Shown piece after piece: positions 15,141 through 42,906 of a DNA stretch of 50,367 nt. Source of the DNA: a virus; IMG/VR virus record IMGVR_UViG_3300001683_000019, positions 1-50,367 of that record. One strand, 5' to 3'. Made by a program: the position numbers and the translations under genes. Under the pieces are notes generated by a model that worked only from the letters and a program-made list of their open reading frames with translations, was not told the origin of the DNA and ran no database searches. Position 1 is the first letter of the stretch, and each line of letters opens with the position of its first letter.

Positions 15141-15857
15141 ATGGTACAGAAATTTAAACAGTTCGTCGCCGAGGCAGGTGGCCAAGCCGCGGGAAAGATG
15201 GAACTGGTTAAGACTGATGTTTCTAAAGCCCGCGAACACGCGGAGAAGGCCTTTGCTGCCAAGGATAGAGTACTAGACGATGAACTTCCTGGATTCGATG
15301 CAGCATACAATAAGGCAAAAAAGATCGCAGGCAGCGGTAAGACGAAACGTAAAGACATGCCAGTCATTTCTGAAACGGATGTGAAGAATCTACAACGTTC
15401 ACTTAAGAGTGGTTCTATTGACATAAAGGCGCCCAGAACTAACTCAGGTAATCCATTCCCTAAAGGTCTTACAGCAGCAACAGGCAAGCAGTGGTTGGAA
15501 AATGGACTGAAGCGAAATGATGGTGAGTCAAAGGATGATGTTGTCAATGTTAAACTCGGCAAAGTAAAGATCGGCGATCTTAAACCAATTCAACAACAGA
15601 TCTATTTTGATAAGTCTGTAGGCGACATTGCTAATTTTGGTGCCGCAGGCACTAAGAGTTTCGCAACATCTAAGGGCAACACATTTATTATCTCATCCGA
15701 TAAGCGGATCATTGACGGACACCACAGGTATCTGGCCGGAGTACTGGTTGATCCATCTATGATGGTGAACGCACTGATTATCGATCTTCCTATCAAGGAA
15801 CTTTTACCTCTGACGCTGTCATATAGTGACGCGGTAGGTAATCAAAGAAATTCGTAA
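15141..15857 (+). CDS. ParB/sulfiredoxin-like domain protein with capsid-targeting-like N-terminus
   Basis: 238 residues. N-terminal KFKQFVAEA resembles the T4 capsid-targeting sequence of internal proteins (F-x-x-F-I-A-E-A). The C-terminal half has the ParB-like pattern: KIGDLKPIQQQIYFDKS, then a SDKRIIDGHHRYLAGVL block with the Asp-Gly-His-His-Arg motif. Such domains can have nuclease, NTPase or DNA-binding roles; which applies here is unknown. A strong AAGGAGAAAG ribosome-binding site precedes the ATG. Possible packaged internal protein. Confidence 0.7.
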   Translation: MVQKFKQFVAEAGGQAAGKMELVKTDVSKAREHAEKAFAAKDRVLDDELPGFDAAYNKAKKIAGSGKTKRKDMPVISETDVKNLQRSLKSGSIDIKAPRTNSGNPFPKGLTAATGKQWLENGLKRNDGESKDDVVNVKLGKVKIGDLKPIQQQIYFDKSVGDIANFGAAGTKSFATSKGNTFIISSDKRIIDGHHRYLAGVLVDPSMMVNALIIDLPIKELLPLTLSYSDAVGNQRNS

Positions 15858-15861
15858 AAAC

Positions 15862-15890
15862 TTGAATTTCTAAAAGAAAACTGTTATACA
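15862..15890 (+). promoter_or_regulatory. sigma70-like promoter upstream of small membrane peptide and gp43
   Basis: -35 TTGAAT (15862-15867), 17-bp spacer, -10 TATACA (15885-15890). Belongs to the TTGAAT class found also at 8245, 16128 and 46020. Confidence 0.6.
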
Positions 15891-15994
15891 TATAAGTGCT
15901 CGGTCAATTATGTCGGGTACAAACACACACATATATATTTTAGAAGGAGCATTTGCGTCCCCATAAAATCCCAACCACATAGGAGACGTATTGA

Positions 15995-16090
15995 ATGAAA
16001 TATGAATTATTCTTGGTGTTCAAATCGCTTGTAGTTGTTACAGCGATATTGATGACAGCACCGGTATATGCATTCATCTGTTATATCTGA
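15995..16090 (+). CDS. 31-residue single-span membrane peptide
   Basis: ATG at 15995 with AGGAG at 15981-15985. The peptide begins MKYELFLVFK and continues through one hydrophobic stretch (SLVVVTAILMTAPVYAFICY), ending in TGA at 16088. It has its own upstream promoter and lies in the leader region before gp43. The VYAF end resembles a signal-peptide cleavage region but little would remain after cleavage. Function unknown; small but well supported by its ribosome-binding site. Confidence 0.55.
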   Translation: MKYELFLVFKSLVVVTAILMTAPVYAFICYI

Positions 16091-16102
16091 TGATAAGGTT
16101 TC

Positions 16103-16125
16103 GTGGAGTTCCATAAAAACTCCAC
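16103..16125 (+). other. hairpin upstream of gp43
   Basis: Perfect 8-bp stem GTGGAGTT/AACTCCAC with loop CCATAAA, 37 nt before the gp43 ATG and just before a TTGAAT-N17-TATAAT promoter. There is no U-tract, so it is not a standard terminator. T4 gene 43 is autoregulated through an RNA hairpin near its start, but this one lies outside the expected translation operator. Confidence 0.5.
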
Positions 16126-16127
16126 AA

Positions 16128-16156
16128 TTGAATTGACTTACTCTATATGATATAAT
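16128..16156 (+). promoter_or_regulatory. sigma70-like promoter abutting gp43
   Basis: -35 TTGAAT (16128-16133), 17-bp spacer, consensus -10 TATAAT (16151-16156). The gp43 ATG is at 16163, where transcription would begin, so this message would be leaderless. Confidence 0.65.
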
Positions 16157-16162
16157 TAATAC

Positions 16163-17788
16163 ATGACTGCATTTTATACGAACGTAACACGCTCTGGAAA
16201 CTCTATATTATACCGTGGTATTGAAAACGGTGAACGAGTCCAGAAGAAAATCAAATATCAACCCACCCACTACATCTTTTCTAAAAAGAAATCAAAATAT
16301 AAATCCCTCTATGGTGATACTGTATCGCCTGTAGTCTTTGCTGATATGCGAGACGCGACGGAATTCCGCAAGAAGTATAAGGACGTCTCCAACTTCACAG
16401 TATATGGAATGGAGAATTATGTCTTCCAGTTCATCAGTGATGCGTTTCCTAAAGACGTTAAATTCGAGAAGGATCTTGTTAACATAACAACAATAGATAT
16501 CGAGGTCGCCACTGCCCAGTATGTACACTCTGGAAAGAAGATTGTTAAAGTTAGAAAAAAAACCGAGTTAATGATGAGTCTCGCCGAAGTGAGACAGAAC
16601 GAAGATGATTATGAAGTGTGGGATGAATCTAAAAAGGAATGGGTCGCATATAATGAATCTAAGTATGATGAAATGGAAGGTACGGGATTTCCTGAACCTA
16701 ATAGCGCAAGTAATGAAGTTACGGCAATTTGCTGTAAGAGTAATCTTAGCGAAACGTACTTTGTCTGGGCACTGGACGACTACGATCCTACCAAGAATGA
16801 AAAGGATGTCACATTCTTTCGGTGTGAAACTGAGTTGGATCTTCTTATGTCTTTCGTTGGATGGTGGAGTTCTGCTCCCAATATGCCTGATATTGTTACT
16901 GGATGGAATTCTAAACTCTTTGACATCAAGTATCTTGTTAATAGAATAACGAATCTGATAGGTATCGAGACTGCCAAGCGTCTATCGCCATGGGGTATGG
17001 TTGATGAACGCGTCACGCGCGTACAGTTAGGCAAATCATACCAAGAGGACTATTATTACGAACTGCGCGGCATTACGCAACTAGACTATCAGGAACTGTT
17101 CCTGAAGTTTGGTGTGCTCATCTACGGGCGACAAGAACGATACTCACTGGATCATATTGCCCAACAGGTACTAGGTCGAAAGAAGATCGACTACGGTGAG
17201 TACGGAACACTTCACGCCCTATACAAAGAGAACCATCAGTTGTTCATCGATTACAACATCGAAGACTGTGCATTGGTCGAGGGTATTGATAGCGAAACAG
17301 AATTAATCGATCTGGTCATGACGCTTTCATATAAGGCGAAATGTACCTATAGTGATGCGTTAGGAACTACAGGCATATGGGATGCTGTAATCTATAACGA
17401 ACTGAAGCAACAGGACATTGTGATCCCACCTAAGATTCATAAGACAGGCGATAAGATCGTTGGTGGATATGTCAAAGATCCAGTAATCGGGTTGAGTAAA
17501 CATGTCGCTTCTTTCGATTACGAAAGTCTGTATCCTAATATCATGGTGCAGTACAACATATCACCAGAGACCATGGTCGATATCAGTCAGGGTGGTGATG
17601 TAACGATCACTGCCAACTCCGCCCGCTTCCGACGGGATGCAGAGGGCATCTTCCCTCAGGTGATCAAGAAGTTCTATGGTGACAGGCGCGATGCGAAGAG
17701 ACGGAAACTCGATGCCCAACAACAATTGATTGAGATAGAAAAGGCAATCGCAAAATTGTATGAGTCTGGAAAACTAAATGAATTATGA
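16163..17788 (+). CDS. 43: DNA polymerase gp43, N-terminal part (exonuclease and palm N-half)
   Basis: 541 residues of a family B polymerase. The N-terminal MTAFYTNV matches family starts. 3'-5' exonuclease motifs: Exo I with D112 and E114 (TIDIEVA), Exo [14 protein letters not shown], Exo [12 protein letters not shown]. Polymerase motif A is DYESLYP (residues 452-458), followed by a [14 protein letters not shown] fingers helix. The frame ends at TGA 17786, within the fingers, and the rest of the enzyme continues in another frame from 17778. No Shine-Dalgarno is visible; a promoter -10 lies 6 nt upstream. Confidence 0.92.
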
Positions 17789-18863
17789 TGATATGACGCT
17801 CGAGGAACTAGAACTTCTTCGGGATGAGACTAAGACAGAAATTTCTGTTGCTGATAACCAGCAGATGGCAGTGAAAATTTTGCTCAATTCACTTTTCGGT
17901 AGTTGTGCCAACCAATATTTCAGATATTTTAATAGTACCCTGGCAGAGTCGGTGACGGTGAGTGGTCAACGTGCTATTCTCTTCGCCGAGGCAGCGATCA
18001 ATAAGGAGATGAATAAACTCCTAGAGACGACCGATGATGATTATGTGATTGCGATTGATACCGACTCGTTGTATGTCAACATGCATCCGTTGGTTGAAAA
18101 GTTCGAACCTAAAAACAGTATTAACTTTCTTGATAAGATTTGTAGTACACATTTCGCTGCTTGTCTGGAGAGTGCCTGTCAGAAACTATCAGACGCCACT
18201 AATGCATACGAGAACCGTATGATAATGGAGCGCGAGGTAATCGCATCATCAGGAATATGGACAGCAAAGAAACGATACATACTTCGCGTACATGATAACG
18301 AGGGTGTCCGATACGATAAACCCAAACTGAAGATCATGGGCATCGAGGCAATCAAGTCATCGACACCTCAGATCTGTCGTGATAAATTTCTAGAACTGTT
18401 CGAGATCATAATGGACGATGACGAGATTCTAACTCAGGAGTTTATTGCAGAATTCAAAAAGTTGTTCAAGACACTAGAACCGGAGGCAATCGCCTTTCCT
18501 CGTTCGGTGTCGAATGTTCGTAAGTACCATGATAGAAAGTATATCTATGGTAAAGGAACGCCTATACACTCGCGTGGTGCGTTACTGTACAATCACCACA
18601 TCAAGAAGAATCGACTAGACAAGAAGTATGAATTGATCAAGGACGGTGAGAAGATAAAGTTCATTTATCTGAAGCAACCGAACCCGATCAAAGAAAATGT
18701 TGTGACTTTTCCGCAAATTTTACCGCCAGAGTTGAAATTGCATGGTCATATAGACTATAATACTATGTATGAGAAAACTTTTCTCGATGGTCTAAAACCT
18801 ATCCTAGATTCCCTAGGGTGGACTGCCGAGGAAGTATCTACGCTGGATGCGTTTTTTGTATGA
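17778..18863 (+). CDS. 43: DNA polymerase gp43, C-terminal part (fingers/palm/thumb)
   Basis: 361 residues continuing the polymerase without a visible gap: motif [10 protein letters not shown] (33-41), motif C IDTDSLY with catalytic Asp 94 and 96, the KKRY motif, and a C-terminal TLDAFFV that fits the clamp-binding tail bound by gp45. A TAA immediately precedes its ATG in this frame, and the ATG overlaps the end of the first part by 11 nt. So either two subunits assemble, as described for some T4-like phages with split gene 43, or +1 frameshifting or a sequence error is involved. Confidence 0.92.
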
Positions 18864-19795
18864 AATATGTACTGACATTATTTAAGAACAGATTTGATAC
18901 CGCGACAACTAATACGTTTGCGTTTGATGATTTTGAGGACTTTGAGAGGATTCTGTATGATCTTCATGCTCTATCTACAACAAAGAAAAAAGCGCCACTT
19001 ATGTCTTCCGCAACGTATGTACCCACGGACAAGCGCGCAAACAGAAATGTTGTTAAGTGGGCAGGATGGTGCGCAATGGATGTGGACAGTTTTATTGTAG
19101 ACTGTACCGACGATCTAAATGCGCTTCAAGATGCACTCCATAGTATATGTGGTGAGTACACCTTTGTGTGTTACTCGACGGCGTCCTCTACCCGGGCACA
19201 CCCGAAGTTCAGGTTAGTGTTTCCGCTAACTAAAGACATCGAAGCAAATAAGATCAAACACTTCTGGTATGCGCTCAACAAACAGGTACAGGATATAGGC
19301 GATGCCCAGACTAAGGATCTATCTCGAATGTTTTATATTCCAGGTCAGTATCCAGATGCGTTCAATTTCATCTACACAAATCATGGTAAACCTGTTAATC
19401 CAGATGGTCTGATGCGAAAATGGGAATACAGAGAACCTTCTGGTAATAGTTTCCTTGATCGTTTACCTGAAGAAATGAAAGAACAGATAATCGCATATCG
19501 AAAAGAACAGATGACAAATACAGATATCGTCTGGACTTCGTATCGCGACTGTCCGTTTTTTCCTAAGAAACTGGCGTCTGAGTATAGGGCGATATCGGGC
19601 ACCGGGTGGTATCATAAGATGTACCAGATCATGATCGCCACAGCAGGCAATGCTATAGCGAAGGAGTACCCTATCACGGCAAGAGAAATCACAGCGATGT
19701 GTAAGCAACTCGACGCCGAGACAGGTAACTGGTATGAAGATAGACCGCTTGAACTCGAAGCGACTGGAGCAATAGAATATGTTTACAGGAATTAA
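18860..19795 (+). CDS. primase-like protein, possible archaeo-eukaryotic (AEP/PrimPol) type
   Basis: 311 residues from the ATG overlapping the polymerase stop (ATGA). [11 protein letters not shown] motif (Asp-x-Asp near residues 74-76) is followed by [21 protein letters not shown], with the Ser/His/Arg pattern of VirE-N/PrimPol-like AEP domains, and an [10 protein letters not shown] block. T4 uses a DnaG-type gp61 primase and none is seen in this window. Location between gp43 and UvsX/gp41 supports replication priming, but activity is inferred from weak motifs. The C-terminal part is helical. Confidence 0.6.
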
Positions 19796-19797
19796 TA

Positions 19798-20205: not shown

Positions 20206-20206
20206 C

Positions 20207-21250: not shown

Positions 21251-21251
21251 A

Positions 21252-29832: not shown

Positions 29833-30190
29833 TAGAACAGAGAACCAACAGCAAACTGTGCATGATAAACATTATAATCGGATTGATTACAAATTTAATG
29901 AATCTAACCTTGTCAATGAATTACAGGCGTATATCGATGCCACATACGACGAGCATTATGCGAATGGTAAATACCAAGCGACGGATATGATCATCGATGC
30001 TGGTCATGGTACTGGATTCTGTATCGGCAATGTTCTGAAGTATGGTAAGCGATACGGTACGAAAGGAACACCCGCTGATCAGCGAAAGGACTTGCTGAAG
30101 ATTCTTCACTATGCGATTATCCAATTGAATATTCATGATCAGAATCGTGGTGATGAAACCGTGCAGTTGCTCTGGGACAGACTCTATTAG
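29819..30190 (+). CDS. DUF3310-like protein
   Basis: 123 residues with GFCIGNVLKYGKRYGTKGTPADQRKDLLKILHYAIIQL, the GN-x-x-KY-x-x-R...DL-x-K-x-x-HY pattern of the DUF3310 (SaV-like) phage family. Strong GAGGAG precedes the ATG. The family is common in phage early regions and its reaction is uncertain. Confidence 0.65.
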   Translation: MSMDNRTENQQQTVHDKHYNRIDYKFNESNLVNELQAYIDATYDEHYANGKYQATDMIIDAGHGTGFCIGNVLKYGKRYGTKGTPADQRKDLLKILHYAIIQLNIHDQNRGDETVQLLWDRLY

Positions 30191-30229
30191 ACGATTTAGA
30201 ATACGAAAAAGAATAGATAAGGAATATAC

Positions 30230-30622
30230 ATGACAGTTAGACAAGGCAAGGTATGGGGAACAACAGAATTATTGGAAGCGAATTCCAGTCTGGAGTTTCA
30301 TCGAATAGAATTCAAACGAAACGTATGCTGTTCGCAGCATCAACACCAAACCAAGTACAATGGTTTCTTCGTTGAGTCGGGACGTATGATGATCAAGGTC
30401 TGGCCAGATTTCGATGATCTGCACACATATGATACGACCTTTCTATCAAACGGCGACTTCATGAAAGTCGAACCCGGACTGTATCACCAGTTCATCGGGG
30501 TTGAGGATGGGGTTGCTTTCGAGTTGTACTGGTCCGAACTCCACACCAATGACATCCATCGGCGAACGGTGGGTCACCGGATCAAGGAAGAGTATGCTGC
30601 ATATGAAGAAATCAACTCCTGA
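30230..30622 (+). CDS. cupin-fold protein
   Basis: 130 residues. CSQHQHQTKYNGFFVESGRMMI and DFMKVEPGLYHQFIG give the two cupin motifs, with His, His, Glu and a later His as likely metal ligands. Resembles sugar-isomerase-type or other small single-domain cupins found in marine phages. Substrate unknown. AAGGA precedes the ATG. Confidence 0.75.
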   Translation: MTVRQGKVWGTTELLEANSSLEFHRIEFKRNVCCSQHQHQTKYNGFFVESGRMMIKVWPDFDDLHTYDTTFLSNGDFMKVEPGLYHQFIGVEDGVAFELYWSELHTNDIHRRTVGHRIKEEYAAYEEINS

Positions 30623-33107: not shown

Positions 33108-34514
33108 ATGGCGACACTCAAGTCTAACGATTTCACCAAACCCGCGTCCGGCGGACCATATGCTGGCCAAGATCGGTTTAAAATCTTCGGTCTGAAAATA
33201 AAAGACAAGCGAACATTCTTTATAGGCGATAACGAACGCTCCGGAAAGGAAGTCGTTGGTATTTCAATCGATAAAACGTCCAAGAAATTCACGTATGAGA
33301 TAGGAAAGGGCCGTACCGCGAAACAAGAAACAGTACCAATAACCCGTGTGTTCAAAGATAAAGACTTCGGTGGTGGTGCAGGTTCAGGTGGTGGTGCAGA
33401 AGATACCAAATTCACCGAGTCTATGCAGTGTTTCTATTGCGCGTATGTGTTCAATATCAAGAAAGGTGTATGCAAGTCCGTTTCCGACGCTGATCTCAAG
33501 AAAGCGTCTAAATGGGTTCATGCTGATGCTACGTTGGCAGCGTGTATGAAGAATGGTCCAAAAGACTGGATAGAATCTGACGTATACATCAAGACTGCCA
33601 ATAAACTCTGGGCGGCGTATGGAAAGAAGATGAAAGGTGACGTACTGTTTCATCGTGGTTCTAAGTTCATGACCAACGTGTACAAAGCAAAGACTGCAAC
33701 ACATAAAAAAGACAAGACATCCAAGAAACCCCAAGCGCCCGGATCGTTCTCACATGATAAGTGGAACCCCGGAGATATATGGGCGTCGACGTTTGGTCCA
33801 AATGACGAACCTCTAAAAGAACACACTGACTCTTGGGGAGAGTTGAATGCGACTGTCCACAAACTCGCCACCCAAGGTAAGTTACTAGGTATCTCACTTA
33901 AGAAAATCGCGTCAACCCAAGCATCAGCAAAACTTGTCGAATTCAATTCACCTAAACAGCGATCGAAGCGTGAATCGTATACCTTTAAGGGATACACATA
34001 CGGCAAGACTGGTGACTTCTTCAGTTCACAGGATATCTATCTCCGTACAAGTGAAGGTGACGTCCAGTTTAGGACGTTCGGTGGTGAGACATCCTGGCAG
34101 GGAGAGATAAAAGGTGGCGCTGCTGCCGGTGGTAAGATTGGTGGTGGTAATGTTGATTTCTTCACTAAGCAAGTGTTGGGCGATGGGATATACACCCCAT
34201 TCAATGACGAAAGAACTCTCCTGGCGTGGGTACGAAAAAACGATAGTAAAGCATATCGCCTAAAACTCTGGGACTTGTATAAGAAACACAACAAAGGATC
34301 GAGCAAATCCAAACTACTTCTATCACAAAAAGAGTTTATCGAAAAGTTGAGGGATAAGGATTTCAAATTCAAGAACAGTAAAATCATCTGTCTCGAATTT
34401 ATTGATACTCTAGCGAAGGGTAATAAAAAGAAGAAAGATGAATTCACCACGAAGATGTTTAGGTACGCCCAGTCTAATGTGGATCAATCCAGTTACTTTG
34501 TGAAACTATACTAA
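33108..34514 (+). CDS. large late protein, probable virion component
   Basis: 468 residues, Lys- and Gly-rich. N-terminal part has a beta-rich domain (RFKIFGLKIKDKRTFFIGD), a GGGAGSGGGA linker near 88-97, then a Cys-containing helical part (CFYCAYVFNIKKGVC) and a long C-terminal region. Late box upstream suggests a structural or injected protein. No named family recognised. Confidence 0.7.
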   Translation: MATLKSNDFTKPASGGPYAGQDRFKIFGLKIKDKRTFFIGDNERSGKEVVGISIDKTSKKFTYEIGKGRTAKQETVPITRVFKDKDFGGGAGSGGGAEDTKFTESMQCFYCAYVFNIKKGVCKSVSDADLKKASKWVHADATLAACMKNGPKDWIESDVYIKTANKLWAAYGKKMKGDVLFHRGSKFMTNVYKAKTATHKKDKTSKKPQAPGSFSHDKWNPGDIWASTFGPNDEPLKEHTDSWGELNATVHKLATQGKLLGISLKKIASTQASAKLVEFNSPKQRSKRESYTFKGYTYGKTGDFFSSQDIYLRTSEGDVQFRTFGGETSWQGEIKGGAAAGGKIGGGNVDFFTKQVLGDGIYTPFNDERTLLAWVRKNDSKAYRLKLWDLYKKHNKGSSKSKLLLSQKEFIEKLRDKDFKFKNSKIICLEFIDTLAKGNKKKKDEFTTKMFRYAQSNVDQSSYFVKLY

Positions 34515-34605: not shown

Positions 34606-34668
34606 ATGTTAAATACGTTCCAACAGTTCATCACTGAACAAAAGAACACCCATATGACGCACCTTTGA
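34606..34668 (+). other. N-terminal leader of the DUF6267-like gene, ended by in-frame TGA
   Basis: ATG 34606 has the strongest ribosome-binding site of the window (AAGGAGGT) and encodes MLNTFQQFITEQKNTHMTHL, then TGA. The same frame continues LEDKVIYGGANGTRQ into the main gene. Homologues as I remember them run NTHMEHLED without interruption, so a 6-base insertion containing the TGA fits. TGA is followed by C, a leaky context. Confidence 0.65.
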
Positions 34669-34734: not shown

Positions 34735-35838
34735 ATGAGAGATATGCTTGGCGGGAAACACGCGGGCACTGTGTCCGTTAAGTGGGATGGTGCGCCTGCT
34801 GTCTTTGCCGGCACTGACCCTAGTGATGGGAGATTCTTTGTTGCCAAGAAAGGTATCTTTAACAAGAACCCAAAGGTCTACAAGACACCTCAGGAGGTCG
34901 ACGACGACACATCTGGTGATCTTGCCGACAAACTAAAAGCAGCACTGAAGTATCTTCCTGAACTAGGAATTAAGGGTGTGCTCCAAGGCGATCTCATGTT
35001 CGGTCCGGGTGATGTTAAAGTTGAGACGATTGATACTAAGAAGTATGTCACGTTTCATCCTAATACAATCCTGTATGCTGTACCTTACGAACAAGCGAAG
35101 TCAGTCAGACAAGCGAAGATCGGCATCGTATGGCACACGTCTTATACAGGTTCGTCGTTCGAGACAATGAAGGCGTCGTTTAATGCGGATGCTTCTAGTC
35201 TTAAAAAATCGAAGAACGTATGGTATCAAGATTCTAATCTCAAGAATCTAGAACGTGCTACCTTGAGTAAGAAAGAGACCGAGCAAGTCAATCAGTACCT
35301 GTCACAGATAGGCAAACTGTTCAACAACATAAGCGGTACGACTCTGAGACAACTAGAGGGACACCCGGAACTAACTCAGACGATAGAGACGTTTAGTAAT
35401 ACATTCGTGCGCAAGGGTGAGATAATGAAGAACCCAACCGCGCACACAACAGCACTGATCCGATACATCAAGACCAAGTATAAGAAAGAGATCGATAAAC
35501 GTAAGTCTGAGAAGGGTAAGAAAGCGCAGCGCGACAAACTATCCTCTATTCTCACATTCTTTTCGGATGAGAATAAACTCTCTCTGATCAAACTGTTCGA
35601 ACTCCAGCGATTGATCGTTGTGGTTAAACTCATTCTCATCAAAAAACTCAACAGTCTATCATCTATAGATACTTTTGTACGAACGAAGGACGGTTATAAG
35701 GTAACAGGTGACGAAGGATACGTTGCTATTGACAAGATGTCAGGCGGTGCTTTGAAACTGGTCGACCGGATGCAATTTTCATATTCCAACTTCTCGCCGG
35801 ATATAATAAAAGGTTGGGAATCTGCTTCTAGGAATTAA
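34735..35838 (+). CDS. DUF6267-like phage protein (5' end interrupted)
   Basis: 367 residues from the first ATG after the TGA at 34666; the true protein probably starts at 34606 and is about 410 residues. Conserved blocks: VKWDGAPAVFAGTDP, RFFVAKKGIFNKNPKVY, LKGVLQGDLMFGPGD-like and YVTFHPNTILYAVPYEQA. The KWDGAPAVF and later KGVLQGD blocks recall the nucleotidyltransferase fold of ligases, but I would not call an activity. Late region, with a capsid-targeting-like N-terminus upstream (TFQQFITEQ). Confidence 0.75.
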   Translation: MRDMLGGKHAGTVSVKWDGAPAVFAGTDPSDGRFFVAKKGIFNKNPKVYKTPQEVDDDTSGDLADKLKAALKYLPELGIKGVLQGDLMFGPGDVKVETIDTKKYVTFHPNTILYAVPYEQAKSVRQAKIGIVWHTSYTGSSFETMKASFNADASSLKKSKNVWYQDSNLKNLERATLSKKETEQVNQYLSQIGKLFNNISGTTLRQLEGHPELTQTIETFSNTFVRKGEIMKNPTAHTTALIRYIKTKYKKEIDKRKSEKGKKAQRDKLSSILTFFSDENKLSLIKLFELQRLIVVVKLILIKKLNSLSSIDTFVRTKDGYKVTGDEGYVAIDKMSGGALKLVDRMQFSYSNFSPDIIKGWESASRN

Positions 35839-35857: not shown

Positions 35858-35865
35858 TATAAATA
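35858..35865 (+). promoter_or_regulatory. T4-type late promoter TATAAATA
   Basis: Perfect box 63 nt before the ATG of the basic protein gene at 35929. Confidence 0.7.
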
Positions 35866-35928
35866 AATTGGCAAGATAGCACCTATTGATGCTCTAACAG
35901 TCAACTTTATATTGGATGGGAATAAGGA

Positions 35929-36378
35929 ATGCCTCTTAATACGTTTAGTCAGTTCGTCGCGCAGGAATCCCCGAGCGAAGCAAACAAAACAGAAGTTGAA
36001 GACCTAGACCTTCTCGACGAAGAAGAACTAGACGAAGCACCAGGGAACAATGCTCGAACTCTCAGCATTTCCCAGCGACGCATGGCAGGTCGACGTCTCA
36101 GGCGAATGAAGGGTCGCATCAAGATCGCACGAAAACGCGCACTCAAACGCGCTGCCAATCCAGCGACTCTTAAGAAACGCGCCAAGCGTTCCGTCCGTAC
36201 AACACTATTCACCAAATTCTCTCGCGGTAAGGCGAAGAAGGACGTTGGTCTTGCCCGACGCGCTGGTATTGAACGACGCGTCAACAGAATATCCAAGAGC
36301 AGGGTCGCAGCGATGACCAAACGACAAGTGAGAGGCACCCGACAAATTGATCGTGCGCGGAGAATGCATAAAAAATGA
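35929..36378 (+). CDS. highly basic internal-protein candidate
   Basis: 149 residues. N-terminus MPLNTFSQFVAQESPS resembles a capsid-targeting sequence; an acidic segment follows (VEDLDLLDEEELDEAPG, about 22-38); the rest is an extreme Arg/Lys-rich helical domain (RRMAGRRLRRMKGRIKIARK onwards). This layout fits a packaged DNA-binding head protein with a removable acidic pro-segment, analogous to T4 internal proteins, but the role is inference. ATGA overlap with the next gene. Confidence 0.7.
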   Translation: MPLNTFSQFVAQESPSEANKTEVEDLDLLDEEELDEAPGNNARTLSISQRRMAGRRLRRMKGRIKIARKRALKRAANPATLKKRAKRSVRTTLFTKFSRGKAKKDVGLARRAGIERRVNRISKSRVAAMTKRQVRGTRQIDRARRMHKK

Positions 36379-37349
36379 AGAACGTCTCATCGTTTAAACA
36401 ATATCTGAAGGAAGAACAGAAAGAGGCATATTTCACTTTCGGTCGTCTCAATCCTCCTACAATAGGCCACGGTAAACTACTGGGCGCACTGGCAGCAAAG
36501 GCAGGCAAAGGCACGTACAAAGTTTTTCTGTCGCAGTCCCAAGACGACAAGAAGAATCCATTATCTTACGAACAAAAAGTTAAGCATGTTCGTAAAATGT
36601 TTCCTAAGTTCGGTCGTAACGTTATCTTGAACAGAAAGATCAAGACAGTTTTCGATATCGCCACGCTGCTTTACGATCAAGGCAACAACCGCATCACTAT
36701 GGTGGTAGGATCAGATCGGATCACTGAGTTCAAAACACTCTTAGACAAGTACAACGGCGTCAAGGGTAAACACGGGTTCTACAACTTCGAGAAGATCAAC
36801 GTCGCATCCGCGGGTGATCGCGACCCAGACTCTAACGATGTTTCTGGTATGTCAGCGTCTAAGCAAAGAAAGAACGCTGCTAACAACGACTTCACGACGT
36901 TCTCACAGGGTCTACCGTCCACGTTGTCTGCTAAGGACGCCAAGCGACTATTCAACGACATTCGTGTGGCAATGGGACTTAAAGAAACTGTAGAATTCAA
37001 GCATCACGTTGAACTAGAATCGGTGTCAGACATCCGAGAGAAGTATGTCTCTGGTGAACTGTTCAACGAAGATGATCGAGTCATGATTAAGAGTTCAAAC
37101 AAAAAGGGATATGTACATAGACTAGGAGCAAACTATTTAATCGTCGCCCTAGATGAAGGAAGAATATCCCGCCAGTGGTTGGATAACGTAGTTGCTATCG
37201 AAGAGAAGAAAACAGATGACTGGTATCCTGACCAACCAGAGTGGGGTACAAAGAGAGCGACCGACTCAGCAAAGACAGATACCCCAGGCGAAAAAGTTAA
37301 TCTAGCCAAGGCTAAGAAATTAGTCTCTAAGCGTAAAAAAGGAATATAA
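36375..37349 (+). CDS. nucleotidyltransferase-like protein with capsid-targeting-like N-terminus
   Basis: 324 residues. After SSFKQYLKEEQ the fold begins EAYFTFGRLNPPTIGHGKLL, the GRxxPxTxGH motif of cytidylyl/adenylyltransferases such as NadM, with VVGSDRI and the GMSASKQRKNAA motif (SxxK/R type). This predicts transfer of AMP or CMP to a phosphate-bearing substrate. The C-terminal third has a KOW/SH3-like barrel (DDRVMIKSSNKKGYVHRLGANY) and a basic tail. Late cluster. Confidence 0.75.
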   Translation: MKNVSSFKQYLKEEQKEAYFTFGRLNPPTIGHGKLLGALAAKAGKGTYKVFLSQSQDDKKNPLSYEQKVKHVRKMFPKFGRNVILNRKIKTVFDIATLLYDQGNNRITMVVGSDRITEFKTLLDKYNGVKGKHGFYNFEKINVASAGDRDPDSNDVSGMSASKQRKNAANNDFTTFSQGLPSTLSAKDAKRLFNDIRVAMGLKETVEFKHHVELESVSDIREKYVSGELFNEDDRVMIKSSNKKGYVHRLGANYLIVALDEGRISRQWLDNVVAIEEKKTDDWYPDQPEWGTKRATDSAKTDTPGEKVNLAKAKKLVSKRKKGI

Positions 37350-37352
37350 ATA
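37345..37352 (+). promoter_or_regulatory. T4-type late promoter TATAAATA
   Basis: Perfect box over the stop codon of the nucleotidyltransferase gene; the next ATG is only 6 nt beyond it and the nearest AAGGA is 15 nt away. Confidence 0.6.
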
Positions 37353-37358
37353 AACATC

Positions 37359-39254
37359 ATGCGAAATTTCAACGAAGCAAAACAAACTCCATTCCAGACC
37401 ATGCAGGATATCGTTAAGAATTCCCAAGCGAAGAAGATCGAAGGAAAGATGGTAGACACGTTTACTGCATCCGCGATCACACAGGCATATGCTAAAGTTA
37501 ATGACAAAAATAAGAAAAGAATCGAAACGTCTAACCTATCAACGCTTGTTAACCTCGCACATAAGATAATGGGTGGTGGTTCTAAAAACGAAGCAACGGA
37601 AATGAACGAGAGTATGTCCCCTGCGATGTTTGCTGATCTGAAGAAAGGTGATCGTCTACAGATTAAGTTTGATTCACCTATGGCCAAAGGCAATTCAGGT
37701 AGTTTCGTTGTCTCTTTTAAGTCTAAGTCCAAGAAGTATAATCTCGAAAAGGTTACATTGACGAAGGACAAGAAAGGTCCAGGCGTGAAGTATTACCTCT
37801 ACAATCGTAATGGTAAAGTGTCGATGGCACAGGGCGACATGGCGGTATCACTCACTAATGTGGTTAAAGAGTCTACAGAGAATAAAGAAGTGATTGAAGG
37901 GAGTAAAATCGTTAAGAAAGCATTAAATCCAGACAAACCATTGACCAGGCGTCAAAAGGATAAGCTTAAGCGCGACGCGCGCGGTAAGATTTGTACGGAT
38001 ATACACAATCGTTCATTAATGAAAGAAGCATTCAAAGTCGGTGATTATGAATTAGAAGAAGGTACATGGAAAATGCCTAAAAATAATAAACAAATCGCTC
38101 CTCTTATGAAACTAATGAAAAAACCTATTAAGTTAGGTAAAGACGGTGATGCTGCTATTGATGTTATAGAACCCTATATAGGTGATGACGAGTTATATGA
38201 TGATTTATATGATGCTGGTAAGAAAAATCCAAATGGTGATGCAAGGCCTATTATTAAGGATGCTTTAAGACGGTTTGGTTTCAAAGAAGAAGTGTCCGTT
38301 GATGAACTTAGCACTAAGACTTTGCAAAGTTACTCAGATAAGTCATGGAAAAACAAGAAGCGTAGTAAAGGTGTCAAGACTGCTGCTGGTAAAATCGTTA
38401 AGAAAGCATTAATGAAAGAAGCATTCAAAGTCGGTGATTTTGTATTGGTAAACACTGGTCCACATAAGGGTGAGAAGCATGAGATCATCCATGTCAAACC
38501 AGGCGGTGGATACAATGTCATACCAGTCGGGTTAATGGCGCGGGACATCAAATACAAACTCGGTGCTGCTGGTGCCAAGGCATCGAATGTGTCTGTCTGG
38601 AAAGAGTCTGTTGAACAGGTTGACGAGGGAAAGGTTGGTATCTACAGAAAATCAAATAGTCCAGCATACGATGGTGAAGATGCCCATAACTCAGCAAGAC
38701 ATACGCTTGTAAAACGTGCTGGTAAGCATCTCACATTCAAGAACGAAGCACAGGCAAAGGCATGGATCAAGAAGAACACCACTGCCGGCAAGGAATTCCT
38801 TTTCAGGAAAGTGAGCAAGTCGGTCAAAGAGTCTGTTGAGCAGATCGATGAACTAACAGACAAGCAGAAGGCAGAGATCGCAAAGCGCAAAGCAATGCGA
38901 CAGGGACAAGCAGCGAAGAAGAAAGAAAAGACTGCTGCCAAGAAAGCGGCCGCTGAGAAGAAGAAGAAAGATAATCCTAATGCTCGGGGAGAGTATCTTG
39001 ACGCTGCGGACAAGGGTCTGATTATGCAGTTGAGATCTGCCGAAGATATCAGTAACGAGAAGGAACATCCAATAACTTTCCGTCGAGGAAAGACAGAGAA
39101 AGTTCCACATGAAGATGTAAAGGCAGTGCTTTCTTTCCATGATGCACTCAAGAAACCAGACGACAAACGCCGATTAAAAATTCAACTTGCTAAAGGCGGA
39201 GCAACTGCTGCTAAGAAACTGGCAGACGTTTATCGAAAAACTGCAGGTAAATAA
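37359..39254 (+). CDS. large modular late protein with repeated KESVEQ-type linkers
   Basis: 631 Lys-rich residues built from modules: a beta domain (KKGDRLQIKFDSPMAKGN), a segment with LNPDKPLTRRQKDKLKRDARG, two copies of LMKEAFKVGD leading different domains, a VDELSTKTLQSYSDKS motif seen in many large phages, a KOW-like VLVNTGPHKGEKHEI barrel, and a C-terminal coiled, Lys/Ala-rich region. Modules are joined by KESVEQVDEG, KESVEQIDEL and related sequences with V/I/L-x-E sites like those cut by T4 prohead protease gp21. I infer a head-packaged polyprotein; no direct homologue is known to me. Confidence 0.65.
   Translation: MRNFNEAKQTPFQTMQDIVKNSQAKKIEGKMVDTFTASAITQAYAKVNDKNKKRIETSNLSTLVNLAHKIMGGGSKNEATEMNESMSPAMFADLKKGDRLQIKFDSPMAKGNSGSFVVSFKSKSKKYNLEKVTLTKDKKGPGVKYYLYNRNGKVSMAQGDMAVSLTNVVKESTENKEVIEGSKIVKKALNPDKPLTRRQKDKLKRDARGKICTDIHNRSLMKEAFKVGDYELEEGTWKMPKNNKQIAPLMKLMKKPIKLGKDGDAAIDVIEPYIGDDELYDDLYDAGKKNPNGDARPIIKDALRRFGFKEEVSVDELSTKTLQSYSDKSWKNKKRSKGVKTAAGKIVKKALMKEAFKVGDFVLVNTGPHKGEKHEIIHVKPGGGYNVIPVGLMARDIKYKLGAAGAKASNVSVWKESVEQVDEGKVGIYRKSNSPAYDGEDAHNSARHTLVKRAGKHLTFKNEAQAKAWIKKNTTAGKEFLFRKVSKSVKESVEQIDELTDKQKAEIAKRKAMRQGQAAKKKEKTAAKKAAAEKKKKDNPNARGEYLDAADKGLIMQLRSAEDISNEKEHPITFRRGKTEKVPHEDVKAVLSFHDALKKPDDKRRLKIQLAKGGATAAKKLADVYRKTAGK
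37903..38439 (+). repeat. dispersed direct repeats marking module shuffling
   Basis: Block A (24 bp, GTAAAATCGTTAAGAAAGC plus TTAA) occurs at 37903-37926 and 38389-38412. Block B (33 bp, starting CATTAATGAAAGAAGC) occurs at 38014-38046 and 38407-38439. At the second site A and B are fused; at the first they are separated by about 90 bp. Confidence 0.85.
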
Positions 39255-39283
39255 CGACTACACAGATGTAAGGGAAATAATAA

Positions 39284-39577
39284 ATGCCAGACTCACAAGA
39301 TGCGCGATTATCAAGAATCGAAGATAAATTAACAGCGATACAGGATGCGCTTGTCACTCTTGCGCGCGTAGAAGAAAAGATCGCTGATCTTGAAGTTCGT
39401 CGACAAGAACAGAGAGAAGATGACGTCCTTACTAACAAAACAATAGAACTGTTGGATAGGAAGATCGCTAAAATAGGCGAGAAAACAGACTGGCACGAAA
39501 AGGTTATTTGGTATATTGTCGGTGGCACACTTATCTTTGTTGGTTCACAAATACTAGTAGCTATGCAGGGAGCATAG
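39284..39577 (+). CDS. coiled-coil protein with C-terminal membrane span (XhlA-like layout)
   Basis: 97 residues. A long charged coiled coil (ARLSRIEDKLTAIQDALVTL onwards) followed by one membrane segment (VIWYIVGGTLIFVGSQILVAM). This layout matches holin-associated XhlA-type proteins. Late region; may support lysis. Confidence 0.6.
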   Translation: MPDSQDARLSRIEDKLTAIQDALVTLARVEEKIADLEVRRQEQREDDVLTNKTIELLDRKIAKIGEKTDWHEKVIWYIVGGTLIFVGSQILVAMQGA

Positions 39578-39628
39578 ATCTATGACAGATAATAAAGGTC
39601 TATACACGAAATTAAAGGAGTTTTAGAA

Positions 39629-40660: not shown

Positions 40661-40688
40661 TGAAGTCCTTTATAGATGGAGCAACATA

Positions 40689-40907
40689 ATGATTAAGCAA
40701 CCAAGTTTCGCACCCGAATCAATACCTACTCCCATGGGCTGGGTTGATCCACAGGGTGGCATGGTGTCAGCAATGCAACTATCGCCTGGCGATATTCGCG
40801 AATGGTACAGCGCGCAAAGCGGACCACAGATGCTGACCGAAGCACCGACTGATGGATCGTTTCATATCGATGGTGACATGAAAAGACATTTCTGGGGCGA
40901 GTCTTGA
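40689..40907 (+). CDS. small conserved late protein
   Basis: 72 residues from ATG 40689 with GGAG upstream; the frame is open earlier but overlaps the preceding gene. Starts MIKQPSFAPESIPTPMGWVDPQ, with LSPGDIREWY, a pattern I recall in related marine phages. Function unknown. Confidence 0.6.
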   Translation: MIKQPSFAPESIPTPMGWVDPQGGMVSAMQLSPGDIREWYSAQSGPQMLTEAPTDGSFHIDGDMKRHFWGES

Positions 40908-40937
40908 AGAAGATCAAGAAAGAAATACAATAGTACA

Positions 40938-41219
40938 ATGTCAGACGATCTCATTGAGTTCACTCCTGCTACGCCTGACCTCGATAAAGAGGAGAGACGG
41001 TTAGAACTGGAACTCAGAGAAGAGAAAGCAGAATCACAGAAGCGAATGGCATGGGTTGCAATGATCTCTATGATCGTCTTCACCGTTTTCTTATTTCTTC
41101 CTTTCTTCAGTGATGAAAGGATTAACGCAATCGGAGATGTGCTCGGATTGTTCTTTGTCGCCCAAGCAGGTATTGTGGGAGCGTATTTTGGTTTCACCAG
41201 TTGGATGAGTAGAAAGTAA
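40938..41219 (+). CDS. small membrane protein, possible holin-type
   Basis: 93 residues: charged N-terminal coiled segment (LDKEERRLELELREEKAESQ), then two hydrophobic spans (WVAMISMIVFTVFLFLPFF; VLGLFFVAQAGIVGAYFGF). Late region near two other small membrane proteins. A holin role is possible but unproven. Confidence 0.6.
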   Translation: MSDDLIEFTPATPDLDKEERRLELELREEKAESQKRMAWVAMISMIVFTVFLFLPFFSDERINAIGDVLGLFFVAQAGIVGAYFGFTSWMSRK

Positions 41220-41262
41220 CTAGATAGATATACACTTAGTGCTTTCCCTTTGGAATTAATAT

Positions 41263-41631
41263 ATGAAGTTGTTTGAAGAACTGAACGAAGATGTCTTCCT
41301 GTTATTCGCTGCGCGTCATTACTATAACCCTATATGTATCGACGCAGAAGAATTTCATGAAGATCTCAAGAGATTTAAATATGTGAAGCGTTTGATCAGT
41401 AGATTTACTGCTGGTGGATCGTTAAACGAGACGTTGATACTGAACCACTTGATTGTTATTTTCAATGTGTTCGGGACAGATGCTGGGTTAAAGATGTTGG
41501 AATTTAGATTAGAAGATAGATACTGGTCGACACTAAAACCATTCTTAATCTTCCTGAAGATTATTCCAAACGATATTTACACTGAAATACCAATGAACAA
41601 GGAAGTAATAGAGAGGTTGAGAAAAATATAA
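41263..41631 (+). CDS. conserved T4-like phage protein (cyanophage type)
   Basis: 122 residues, MKLFEELNEDVFLLFAARHYYNP, FKYVKRLISRF and LILNHLIVIFNVFGTDAGLKML. I recognise this as a protein conserved in cyanophages and related marine T4-like phages, function unknown. All-helical by composition. Stop overlaps the next start (TAATG). Confidence 0.75.
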   Translation: MKLFEELNEDVFLLFAARHYYNPICIDAEEFHEDLKRFKYVKRLISRFTAGGSLNETLILNHLIVIFNVFGTDAGLKMLEFRLEDRYWSTLKPFLIFLKIIPNDIYTEIPMNKEVIERLRKI

Positions 41632-42218
41632 TGTCATTAGCATCTAGAGCAGGCGATCTATACTACACGTTTCGTTTTATCAAAATGTTGACGACCCCGT
41701 TTGAAGATACAGATGCATTTAAACTTGGTCTCATTGACGCGAAAGGTAAGAGGATCAAGTCTGAGAAGATTGTGGATGCAGAACAGAAATCAGCATTCAC
41801 TACCTTCCATCGTTTGGTGTTTAATATTAAGAAACTGATGGCGAAGATTCCGTTCGGTAGTTCCAAACTCGCGTCATATGCTGCAGCGTTGTTTCTAGTC
41901 AAAGAACATTTCGGTGTATCGGACAAGAACCTAGAACGCATTGTTGAAAAGACCGAGATCGATTCTCTCGACTTCATGACAGAAGAATCGAAATGGTATC
42001 TCCTTGATGACCGTAGACTCTCGCCAGGAGTTTACAAACTACATAACGAGAAGTTACTATCAGACACGCTAGAAGAAGCAGTCTTAGCTAAAGACAGCAT
42101 CCGCGTAGGAAGTGAATCATATCCTGTAGGAATAGTATTTGGCCTTGACATATATGAAGCGCAACATGTAAAGACTGGCAAAAAGGTACACTTCACTATA
42201 GGCGAAATCTATAGATGA
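41631..42218 (+). CDS. conserved T4-like phage protein (cyanophage type)
   Basis: 195 residues starting MSLASRAGDLYYTFRFIKMLTTPFEDTDAFKLGLID, with FTTFHRLVFNIKKL and a C-terminal YLLDDRRLSPGVYKLHNEKLL segment. This pairs with the preceding gene in related phages as I remember them. Function unknown; sits in the late cluster. Confidence 0.75.
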   Translation: MSLASRAGDLYYTFRFIKMLTTPFEDTDAFKLGLIDAKGKRIKSEKIVDAEQKSAFTTFHRLVFNIKKLMAKIPFGSSKLASYAAALFLVKEHFGVSDKNLERIVEKTEIDSLDFMTEESKWYLLDDRRLSPGVYKLHNEKLLSDTLEEAVLAKDSIRVGSESYPVGIVFGLDIYEAQHVKTGKKVHFTIGEIYR

Positions 42219-42255
42219 AAGGTTTTAAGCAACATCACATAGAGAGAATAATAAC

Positions 42256-42906
42256 ATGAAAGGTTTCAAGCAATTCGCAGAGTCAATGGACCATAAGTCC
42301 GACAACGAACTTCTGAAGATATCTAGATCGACGCACCCGCATGCCGCCGGAGCGATGGTTGCTCTCAAGAAACGTGGAGTAAAGGTACACAATCCTGCTA
42401 CTGGCAAGAAAGAGTCTGTTGAAGAGAGTAAGAACAACTATACAGAGAAAGTCACCATGGGCAAACCCGAGGTGGGATCTGGTTATGAAGATGATGGTTC
42501 TTCTATTATAAGTTATGATATTTTTTATGGTAAAACATTAATTGGCCAAGTGGAAGATGGAAGAGAATATGATGGACAAATCAATATCTCAATCGACAAA
42601 ATTGATCGCAGTAACAAAAACAGCGGATATGACCTTCTCAAGTTTGTCACCAAAAAAGATGCCGACGAACGTGATGCTCGATCAGGAGTCAGTAAATTCC
42701 TCAAAACACCATCTGGCAAAAAATGGACTGTATCCGCAGTAAAATCGGCGGGGATAAAAGAAGAAGGAGATCCAACCAGTACATCTGATGTTGTAGGCAC
42801 TGGCGATGATGTGGCAGATTGGAAGACAAAGAAGAAGAAGAAATCATCGGTCGTAACGCGGCACTATATAGAAGTCAACGGTAAAAGAAAGAAGCAGACT
42901 AAATAA
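42256..42906 (+). CDS. late protein with capsid-targeting-like N-terminus and KESVEE linker
   Basis: 216 residues. N-terminus MKGFKQFAESMDHKSDNELL fits the F-x-Q-F-x-E pattern; AMVALKKRGVKVHNPATGKKESVEESK gives a repeated linker; a central beta domain follows; the C-terminus has DPTSTSDVVGTGDDVADWK then a Lys-rich tail. Possible internal head protein. A near copy of its first codons starts 41 nt upstream (MKGFKQHHIERIIT, ending in TGA that overlaps this ATG). Confidence 0.65.
   Translation: MKGFKQFAESMDHKSDNELLKISRSTHPHAAGAMVALKKRGVKVHNPATGKKESVEESKNNYTEKVTMGKPEVGSGYEDDGSSIISYDIFYGKTLIGQVEDGREYDGQINISIDKIDRSNKNSGYDLLKFVTKKDADERDARSGVSKFLKTPSGKKWTVSAVKSAGIKEEGDPTSTSDVVGTGDDVADWKTKKKKKSSVVTRHYIEVNGKRKKQTK

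What the first reader, a model, noticed from the sequence alone, without database searches (positions are those of the whole stretch)
15141..42906. A set of late proteins share a capsid-targeting-like N-terminus: possible packaged, injected cargo
Five proteins begin with a common motif: KFKQFVAEA (15141), TFQQFITEQ (34606), TFSQFVAQE (35929), SFKQYLKEE (36375) and GFKQFAES (42256). In T4, internal head proteins carry an N-terminal capsid-targeting sequence of the form F-x-x-F-I-A-E-A that is removed by prohead protease gp21 after an I/L/V-x-E site. Here the same pattern heads proteins of quite different nature: ParB-like, DUF6267-like, an Arg/Lys-rich protein and a nucleotidyltransferase. Four of the five lie in the late region. 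The inference is that this phage packages a set of enzymes into the head and injects them with its DNA.
Basis: partly seen in the sequence, partly recalled or inferred. Interest (0 to 1): 0.8.

Follow-up and report, generated by a model that had tools for sequence, protein, structure and literature searches.

The report
Head-packaging tag on marine phage enzymes
Several unrelated proteins of this T4-like phage begin with the same short tag that phage T4 uses to load proteins into its head, and in a related phage with a published particle inventory such tagged proteins turn up in purified particles, so phages of this kind probably carry ready-made enzymes into the next cell they infect.

Summary
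Three of five N-termini (15141, 34606, 36375) match the T4 capsid-targeting sequence (CTS): aromatics at CTS positions 4 and 7, I/L/V at 8, Glu at 10. In 35929 and 42256 the Glu is displaced, but homologues carry the canonical tag (45 of 78; 4 of 4). The 34606 frame has a TGA soon after the tag, so this population probably makes no tagged enzyme from it.

A motif model trained on one family (DUF6267) finds the tag on about thirty other families in related phages, far above shuffled and internal controls. The four functional positions are each recovered when left out. gp21 protease is in 13 of 13 large T4-like genomes searched. Four control phages have no gp21 match and no hit at 10 bits (one at 8.5).

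In the published S-CREM2 virion list, 5 of 52 detected and 0 of 165 undetected genes carry the tag at 7 bits (5 and 1 in a wider register). Virion-detected cytidylyltransferases are tagged in 4 of 4 cyanophages examined. S-SZBM1 is mixed: two strongly tagged proteins were not detected. Packaging is well supported in relatives; cleavage and injection are inferred. The mechanism is T4's; the breadth of enzyme cargo is new.

The parts
15141..15173 (+). N-terminal tag MVQKFKQFVAE of the ParB-like protein (gene 15141-15857); predicted cut after Glu11
   Evidence: 11.6 bits under the DUF6267-trained model. Of 8 loci found, one is identical, three have GFK[RKE]FL[LI]E (start codon not settled), three have MKTFYEHLIDD, and L231 has none
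15141..15857 (+). ParB/sulfiredoxin-like protein with DGHHR motif; packaged-cargo candidate
   Evidence: model residues 132-238 align with ParB/Noc-type chains at Z up to 5.7 and sulfiredoxin at Z 4.7-4.9; phrog_2859 E 1e-12; residues 1-16 pLDDT < 50
34606..34638 (+). N-terminal tag MLNTFQQFITE of the DUF6267 reading frame; predicted cut after Glu11
   Evidence: 21.4 bits; the corresponding Glu is invariant in the 42 relatives aligned, of 73 full-length ones
34666..34668 (+). in-frame TGA separating the tag from the DUF6267 enzyme; also in contig L005, absent from the 77 other loci that hold this stretch
34735..35838 (+). DUF6267 ORF as mechanically listed (no tag from this start); possibly ligase-like core with KWDG motif
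   Evidence: PF19782 E 4e-91; in the model of relative L010, residues 54-212 align with RNA/DNA ligases, Z up to 6.7
35858..35865 (+). T4-type late promoter box TATAAATA, 71 nt before the Arg/Lys-rich gene
35929..35967 (+). degenerate tag MPLNTFSQFVAQE of the Arg/Lys-rich protein
   Evidence: 4.5 bits; 45 of 78 homologues tagged at 6 bits
35929..36378 (+). Arg/Lys-rich basic protein, 149 aa; packaged-cargo candidate
36375..36413 (+). tag MKNVSSFKQYLKE of the nucleotidyltransferase; predicted cut after Glu13
   Evidence: 16.2 bits; 70 of 80 homologues tagged at 6 bits
36375..37349 (+). cytidylyltransferase / NMNAT-like nucleotidyltransferase; strongest cargo candidate
   Evidence: PF01467, just over its cut-off; phrog_3041 and phrog_395 cytidyltransferase; homologues reported in four cyanophage virions, all four tagged
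42256..42282 (+). degenerate tag MKGFKQFAE
   Evidence: -0.7 bits; 4 of 4 homologues in the loci carry a canonical tag; three further relatives begin MKSFKSFTEE
42256..42906 (+). protein of unknown function, 216 aa; weaker cargo candidate
33108..34514 (+). untagged here, but 5 of 19 homologues carry the tag; possible cargo family member that lost or never had it
   Evidence: phrog_1462

Best explanation
The shared N-terminus is a capsid-targeting sequence of the T4 internal-protein type. The first 10-13 residues (consensus M-K-[STN]-F-K-Q-[FY]-[LI]-x-E) dock on the prohead core; the protein is enclosed when the shell closes; gp21 cuts after the Glu; and the freed protein stays with the DNA and leaves with it into the next cell. 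Shown here: the motif, its register, its presence on many unrelated families, gp21 in relatives, and an association with published virion proteins in one relative. Inferred: docking on the core, cleavage, ejection, and what the enzymes do in the cell. In this window the NMNAT-like and ParB-like proteins are the firmest cargo, the Arg/Lys-rich and 42256 proteins are likely cargo with degenerate tags, and the DUF6267 enzyme is probably not packaged in this population because a stop codon separates it from its tag.
For: Model trained on DUF6267 N-termini alone: 97 of 1488 distinct other proteins reach 12 bits at the N-terminus, versus 1 of 14880 internal blocks and 2 of 14880 shuffled N-termini (most of the loci were chosen for carrying DUF6267, so this is not a genome-wide rate). 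Leave-one-out: aromatic at CTS 4 in 53 of 77 representatives, aromatic at 7 in 48 of 75, I/L/V/M at 8 in 61 of 93, Glu at 10 in 47 of 99. These are the four residues mapped in T4 IPIII for targeting (4, 7) and processing (8, 10) (PMC9026906, passages). Scanning residues 2-60, the first aromatic lies at residue 4 or 5 in 107 of 164 non-DUF6267 hits of 9 bits or more. The same model finds T4 IPII and IPIII at 8.3 and IPI at 5.7 bits. gp21 family in 13 of 13 T4-like genomes of 116 kb or more that I searched, and in none of SPO1, P-SSP7, lambda, S-CBS2; at 10 bits 28 of 2877 genes versus 0 of 449 (p 0.017; three of the 28 are DUF6267 itself, at least two are false hits). S-CREM2 virion list (PMC10665884 Table 3): tag at 7 bits in 5 of 52 detected and 0 of 165 undetected genes, p 0.0007: cytidylyltransferase, APH/ChoK-like kinase, SAM hydrolase, ORF13, ORF136. 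Cytidylyltransferases reported in the virions of S-SM1, S-SCSM1, S-SZBM1 and S-CREM2 are tagged in 4 of 4. S-PM2's lacks the tag and was not detected in its virion (PMC3037559 section 26).
Against: S-SZBM1_191 and _192 have strong tags (19.6 and 22.3 bits) but are not in its published virion table. HTVC008M and phiM12 have gp21 and no hit at 10 bits; SPO1, without a gp21 match, has one hit at 8.5. If the tag may start one residue later (one search's register), a gp46-like S-CREM2 gene not in the virion list scores 10.8, making 5 versus 1. The 7-bit threshold was chosen after seeing scores: p is 0.003 at 6 or 8 bits, 0.013 at 9 and 0.057 at 10. A first version with a narrower start search gave 4 versus 0 at 7 bits (p 0.003), and a rank test over all genes showed nothing (p 0.34). 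The S-PM2 survey also missed genuine virion proteins, so its negative is weak. The gp21-bearing genomes were chosen as T4-like, so the gp21 link is not independent of ancestry. The window has no gp21 match. No new N-terminus was seen in any data.
Confidence: 0.83

Rival explanations
1. The shared N-terminus is chance or base composition of short lysine- and phenylalanine-rich protein starts.
For: Two of the five window cases score poorly (4.5 and -0.7 bits), and false hits occur, such as T4 gp44 and a gp46-like gene.
Against: 97 of 1488 versus 2 of 14880 shuffled N-termini; 0 of 2000 window shuffles reach the observed count; leave-one-out recovery of each position.
Confidence: 0.02
2. The tag is a genuine docking peptide, but for another purpose: it brings proteins to the prohead core or another virion part as assembly factors that are not ejected, or it serves expression or localisation in the infected cell.
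For: Ejection is untested. A related shorter motif heads the gene at the T4 gene-68 position next to gp21 in C48C1, G004 and phiM12, with a near match in G002, which suggests a core role. Some tagged proteins are small.
Against: Several tagged proteins are enzymes with no obvious assembly role (NMNAT-like, zeta-type kinases, SAM hydrolase); T4 tag fusions are both packaged and delivered (PMC9026906, passages).
Confidence: 0.12
3. The cyanophage enzymes seen by mass spectrometry are contaminating abundant cell proteins, and the tag is unrelated to packaging.
For: The S-CREM2 and S-SCSM1 authors say this is possible (PMC10665884; PMC9602691; passages). Two strongly tagged S-SZBM1 proteins are not in its list.
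Against: The tag predicts which S-CREM2 proteins are seen (5 of 52 versus 0 of 165), from a model trained on another protein family in other phages; contamination should not follow a 10-residue N-terminal motif.
Confidence: 0.06

Closest known systems
T4 internal proteins IPI, IPII, IPIII and their capsid-targeting sequence, cut by gp21
   Same: Length and register of the N-terminal peptide; aromatics at 4 and 7; I/L/V at 8; Glu at 10; gp21-family protease in relatives; one tag on otherwise unrelated proteins.
   Different: Cargo here includes enzymes or enzyme-like folds (NMNAT-like, ParB-like, DUF6267 in relatives; zeta-type kinases in relatives); first aromatic mostly Phe, not Tyr; cleavage not demonstrated.
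T4 Alt, an enzyme packaged in the head
   Same: An internal head protein with propeptides removed by gp21 (PMC9026906 and PMC5694885, passages); that it is an injected ADP-ribosyltransferase is recalled.
   Different: No ADP-ribosyltransferase was identified among the window's tagged genes; Alt's N-terminus was not compared here.
P1 DarB and its N-terminal packaging signal
   Same: A large counter-restriction protein carried in the head; its first 30 residues suffice to package a reporter (PMC9024508, abstract and passages).
   Different: The P1 authors found no consensus among Dar N-termini; here one consensus is shared by many families and matches T4's.
Virion-associated cytidylyltransferase/NMNAT and kinases of cyanophages S-SM1, S-SCSM1, S-SZBM1, S-CREM2
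   Same: The cytidylyltransferase is a homologue of window 36375, tagged in all four, reported in purified virions.
   Different: The S-CREM2 and S-SCSM1 papers left open whether such proteins are packaged or contaminants, and the passages I read do not mention a targeting sequence.
Ejection proteins of giant phages (phiKZ, SPN3US)
   Same: Prohead-protease-processed cargo ejected with DNA (PMC5694885, passages).
   Different: Propeptides there are mostly much longer than 10-20 residues.

Membership tests
T4-type capsid-targeting sequence (CTS) | 10-19-residue N-terminal peptide with the residues needed for targeting (aromatics at 4 and 7) | tested here: met
   Met for the family and for 15141, 34606, 36375, with a start 1-3 residues longer; 35929 and 42256 have the two aromatics with the same spacing
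T4-type capsid-targeting sequence (CTS) | gp21-type cleavage motif [ILV]-x-E at positions 8-10 | tested here: met
   Met in 15141, 34606, 36375 and in most DUF6267 relatives; out of register in 35929 and 42256
T4-type capsid-targeting sequence (CTS) | Same tag on unrelated mature proteins | tested here: met
   202 proteins of 8 bits or more fall into 40 families after removal of the first 18 residues; one family is DUF6267 itself, a few are false hits, and many are single proteins
T4-type capsid-targeting sequence (CTS) | gp21-family prohead protease in the same genome | tested here: inconclusive
   None in the 50-kb window (a fragment). Present in C48C1, G001-G004 and G007, absent from five other fragments of 16-85 kb that carry DUF6267; present in the other large T4-like genomes searched
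T4-type capsid-targeting sequence (CTS) | Tagged protein present in purified virions | tested here: inconclusive
   Supported in relatives through published lists; not for S-SZBM1_191 and _192; no data for this phage
T4-type capsid-targeting sequence (CTS) | Actual cleavage after the Glu and ejection into the host | not testable with these tools
   Needs N-terminal peptides from virions and delivery assays
ATP-dependent (covalent) nucleotidyltransferase / ligase superfamily, for DUF6267 | Motif I lysine (K-x-D-G) within a ligase-like fold | tested here: inconclusive
   K57, W58, D59 invariant and G60 nearly so; model residues about 54-212 align with several RNA/DNA ligases, Z 4.6-6.7, but the top rows of that list are DnaK helices (Z 7.1), Foldseek's best E was 0.54, and Z under 8 can be generic
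ParB/Srx superfamily, for 15141 | ParB-like nucleotide-binding domain | tested here: inconclusive
   All 17 listed entries are ParB, Noc, Atu1540, PadC, KorB or sulfiredoxin structures, Z 4.4-5.7; DGHHR invariant in 7 of 7 aligned; no Pfam match

The most novel reading that the evidence does not exclude
Marine and aquatic T4-like phages carry a modular, fast-changing injected arsenal: one 10-residue head-loading tag is moved onto NMNAT-like and DUF6267 (ligase-like) enzymes, ParB-like proteins, zeta-type kinases, phosphatase-like proteins and, in S-CREM2, a SAM hydrolase and a kinase, so that counter-measures against host defences (restriction, NAD loss, RNA or DNA damage) act before any phage gene is expressed. 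The tag can then be used to list injected effectors from sequence alone.
Probability: 0.45. Interest if true: 0.88.

Novelty: new variant of a known kind. Interest (0 to 1): 0.72.

Why it matters
Cyanophage papers repeatedly found enzymes such as cytidylyltransferase and kinases in virions, and at least two say they could not tell packaging from contamination (PMC10665884, PMC9602691; passages). A 10-residue tag that predicts which ones are found gives an independent reason to think they are packaged, and lets injected proteins be predicted in uncultured phages. It also gives a candidate set of very early counter-defence proteins to test. The idea that the CTS lets T4-like phages package various proteins is already in print (PMC9026906, passages). 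What I did not find in my searches (one library, without preprints and with few subscription journals) is its systematic use on enzymes in marine T4-like phages, or its link to the virion proteomes.

Tried and rejected
Chance origin of the motif: rejected. Reading TGA as a sense codon: rejected for the window, since 14 of 51 plus-strand genes of 100 aa or more end in TGA. Direct late promoters before tagged genes as evidence of late expression: not supported (0 of 22 versus 94 of 1019). DUF6267 has no solved homologue by sequence (five hits, E 0.037-0.48, none a ligase) and Foldseek gave nothing significant. ParB-like: two PDB sequence hits at E 0.17 and 0.25, neither convincing. Pfam on 20 representatives named only zeta toxin (two proteins), an acid-phosphatase-type HAD domain (one, just under its cut-off) and DUF5824 (one); 16 had no match. 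15141 has only 5 weak matches in the phage collection, all outside the tag. Full virion lists of S-CREM1, S-SM1 and S-SCSM1 are in supplements or figures and were not read. S-CBWM1, whose NMNAT is also reported in virions (passages), was not examined, so the '4 of 4' is of at least five reported. The S-SCSM1 gene was taken to be its ORF91 because it is the only match in that genome. PMC3220722 and PMC10892097 were looked at for Vi01-like virion data (passages) but not used; PMC2993671 was checked for the terms targeting, internal protein, internal head and Alt, and had none. The variant motif MKxFxELRE was found after the main tests and is reported as a separate observation, not as part of the proof.

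Full report
What the window is. The record is a 50,367-base linear IMG/VR virus record. Its genes are of T4-like type: tail tube, UvsW, gp46/47-like, clamp, clamp loader, DNA polymerase, UvsX-like, gp41-like, PhoH-like (names from similarity to the annotated C48C1 genome and recall). The nearest named relative found is phage C48C1 (OQ984149, Kyanoviridae, complete, 156,191 bp), 61.7% identical in the DUF6267 protein and with a matching gene cluster at 60-72 kb.

The observation. Three match the T4 tag strictly, two only in the aromatic part. All five, plus one other, pass a loose pattern that reaches at most 3 in shuffles. The 34606 frame starts well (AAAGGAGGT upstream) but meets TGA after 20 codons. 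A second contig (L005) has the same TGA with 3 mismatches over 11,619 bases, and none of the 77 other loci that hold this stretch has it. So it is a real allele in two assemblies (whether of independent samples is not known), and intact copies are the rule in relatives.

The tag in relatives. Where the 5' end is present the protein usually starts M-x-x-[FL]-x-x-[FYHTS]-[IL]-x-E-[QNS], followed at once by KNTHMTH[IL]ED; L039, L040, L081 and L084 differ slightly. I aligned 42 of 73 full-length ones, which had been picked by the KNTHMTH motif; the tag Glu, which was not part of the picking, is invariant. In the AlphaFold2 model of relative L010, residues 1-18 have pLDDT under 50 (mean 69.5). In S-SZBM1 the DUF6267-like protein starts MAKNTHLEHLEDD and in S-PM2 MATQNKHLEHLEDE, that is, without the tag. 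The tag is therefore a separable extension.

Held-out test. An 8-position model was trained on 50 distinct DUF6267 N-termini (two of them out of register, left in) and applied to the other called proteins of the loci. The gene caller recovered 58 of 64 annotated stops, 51 with the same start, on C48C1 1-50,000. At 12 bits: 97 of 1488 N-termini, 1 of 14880 internal blocks, 2 of 14880 shuffles. Over loci and genomes, hits of 8 bits or more number 202 in 40 families when the first 18 residues are ignored; 54 of the 202 are DUF6267, and a few are evident false hits (T4 gp44, a gp46-like protein, a short minus-strand ORF). When each of the four key positions is left out of the model, the expected residue class still appears far above background. 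Those positions are 4, 7, 8 and 10, the ones mapped by amber-suppressor work in T4 IPIII (PMC9026906, passages read).

Whole genomes. I searched 13 T4-like genomes of 116 kb or more; gp21 (PF03420) is in 13 of 13. At 10 bits the model marks 28 of 2877 genes there and 0 of 449 in SPO1, P-SSP7, lambda and S-CBS2, which have no gp21 match (p 0.017). At 6 bits it is 52 and 1, the one being an SPO1 gene at 8.5 bits. The 28 include three DUF6267 genes and at least two false hits, and G001-G004 and C48C1 also gave training sequences. HTVC008M and phiM12 have gp21 but no hit at 10 bits. The gp21 profile rang in none of the tool's 14 control genomes, so the positive control is T4 itself. Five fragments of 16-85 kb with DUF6267 had no gp21 match, as a fragment may.

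Window proteins one by one. I compared 24 window proteins with the loci and genomes. Tagged homologues (6 bits or more) exist for 33108 (5 of 19), DUF6267 (65 of 89), 35929 (45 of 78), 36375 (70 of 80) and 42256 (4 of 4). The 17 others that had homologues have no tagged one. 15141 and 47718 had no homologue in that set. For 15141, 8 loci were found separately: one identical, three with GFK[RKE]FL[LI]E, three with MKTFYEHLIDD, and one (L231) without a tag.

Virion evidence from print. S-CREM2: Table 3 of PMC10665884 (section read) lists 52 virion proteins. I scored 217 genes (those of my caller plus three listed genes it missed, ORFs 145, 165 and 174, none tagged), allowing any start within 50 codons of the first possible one and the tag from residue 2 to 7. 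At 7 bits 5 of 52 detected and 0 of 165 undetected genes are tagged (p 0.0007); at 6 bits 5 versus 1 (0.003), at 8 bits 4 versus 0 (0.003), at 9 bits 3 versus 0 (0.013), at 10 bits 2 versus 0 (0.057). An earlier version, with starts within 30 codons of the called start, gave 4 versus 0 at 7 bits (p 0.003); its rank test over all genes was not significant (p 0.34), as expected if most virion proteins are structural and untagged. A register one residue wider admits one undetected gp46-like gene at 10.8 bits. The five are the cytidylyltransferase, the APH/ChoK-like kinase, the SAM hydrolase, ORF13 and ORF136. ORF12 (Cas9-like by the authors) has PLRFASFMAEAA from residue 16 of its annotated start and was not counted. 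S-SZBM1: the cytidylyltransferase is tagged (8.0 bits) and detected; _191 and _192 are tagged (19.6, 22.3) and not in Table 1 of PMC9146016. S-SM1 and S-SCSM1 cytidylyltransferases are reported in virions (PMC3037559 section 26; PMC9602691 passages) and are tagged (13.1 and 15.1 bits). S-CBWM1 is also reported to carry an NMNAT and was not examined. S-PM2's cytidylyltransferase is not tagged and was not seen in its virion, but that survey also missed true virion proteins.

What the cargo may do. The 36375 family is NMNAT/cytidylyltransferase-like; the S-SCSM1 and S-CREM2 authors suggest an effect on NAD. DUF6267 carries an invariant KWD followed by a nearly invariant G, and model residues 54-212 align with T. 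brucei RNA editing ligase 1 (Z 6.7, rmsd 3.3, 113 aligned), Palaeococcus RNA ligase (Z 6.1, rmsd 5.9, 120), Trl1 (Z 5.8, rmsd 3.6, 103) and DNA ligases (Z about 5). The first rows of that list are DnaK helices (Z 7.1), matched by another part of the model. This suggests a nucleotidyltransferase/ligase but is below the level the tool calls safe, and Foldseek alone found nothing. 15141 has a ParB/Srx-like C-terminal domain. Other tagged families include two zeta-toxin-type kinases and a HAD phosphatase-like protein, while 16 of 20 representatives have no Pfam match. Counter-defence is inference.

Verdict. For this window the claim is strong for 36375 and 15141, moderate for 35929 and 42256, and probably false in this population for DUF6267 because of the stop. 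Cleavage and injection remain untested. The mechanism is known from T4, and P1 DarB shows that other phages use N-terminal packaging signals too (PMC9024508, passages). The breadth of enzyme cargo and the link to cyanophage virion proteomes were not found in the papers I could search (no preprints, few subscription journals).

Noticed in passing
C48C1 14434-14631, G004 94398-94604, phiM12 29851-30258, and G002 just upstream of gp21; many loci such as L016:3994-4902: A second N-terminal motif, M-K-x-F-x-[DENQ]-[LI]-x-E (for example MKTFKELRES), heads 48 of 3848 proteins without the main tag versus 2.3 expected, and 0 of 449 in phages without a gp21 match. In 3 of 13 genomes, and as a near match in a fourth (G002), it heads the gene at the position of T4 prohead-core gene 68. 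It may be a shortened form of the tag.
   Followed up: partly
S-CREM2 ORF12 and ORF14; cytidylyltransferases of P-SSM4, S-SM1, syn9, S-SCSM1, AG-345-L05: Just after the tag or tag-like stretch, different enzymes share a further module like LGLxxDGHGxWxDxxTGxI. A pattern drawn from these sequences hits three proteins in the 17 genomes scanned, all tagged or tag-like; the others were seen by eye.
   Followed up: partly
window 34666-34668: In-frame TGA between tag and DUF6267 enzyme, shared by one other near-identical contig (L005) and by none of the 77 other loci that hold the stretch.
   Followed up: yes
C48C1 63514-64857 (OQ984149): The annotated cytidyltransferase start (MNPPTIG) leaves out the tag; the open frame continues upstream through VIKNFSQYLLEEE. 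Such start errors can hide tags in databases.
   Followed up: yes
T4 gene 61.1 (18966-19130): A 54-aa T4 protein of unknown function begins MKTFKEFIKED and is the best tag hit in T4 (17.9 bits); it may be an unrecognised internal protein.
   Followed up: no
window 37359-39254: The 631-aa protein has repeated linkers such as KESVEQVDEG and KESVEQIDEL, which resemble gp21 cleavage motifs between modules.
   Followed up: no
window 16163-18863: The DNA polymerase is in two overlapping ORFs (16163-17788 and 17778-18863), whereas C48C1 has one 824-aa gene.
   Followed up: no
Vi01 141852-142301: A small Vi01 protein begins MKTFLEFYRES (5.1 bits) and continues with LYHGS, which recalls ADP-ribosyltransferase folds such as T4 Alt (the resemblance is recalled, not tested).
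   Followed up: no
window, nine sites: T4-type late promoter box TATAAATA occurs 9 times on the plus strand and never on the minus strand; 2.3 expected on both.
   Followed up: partly
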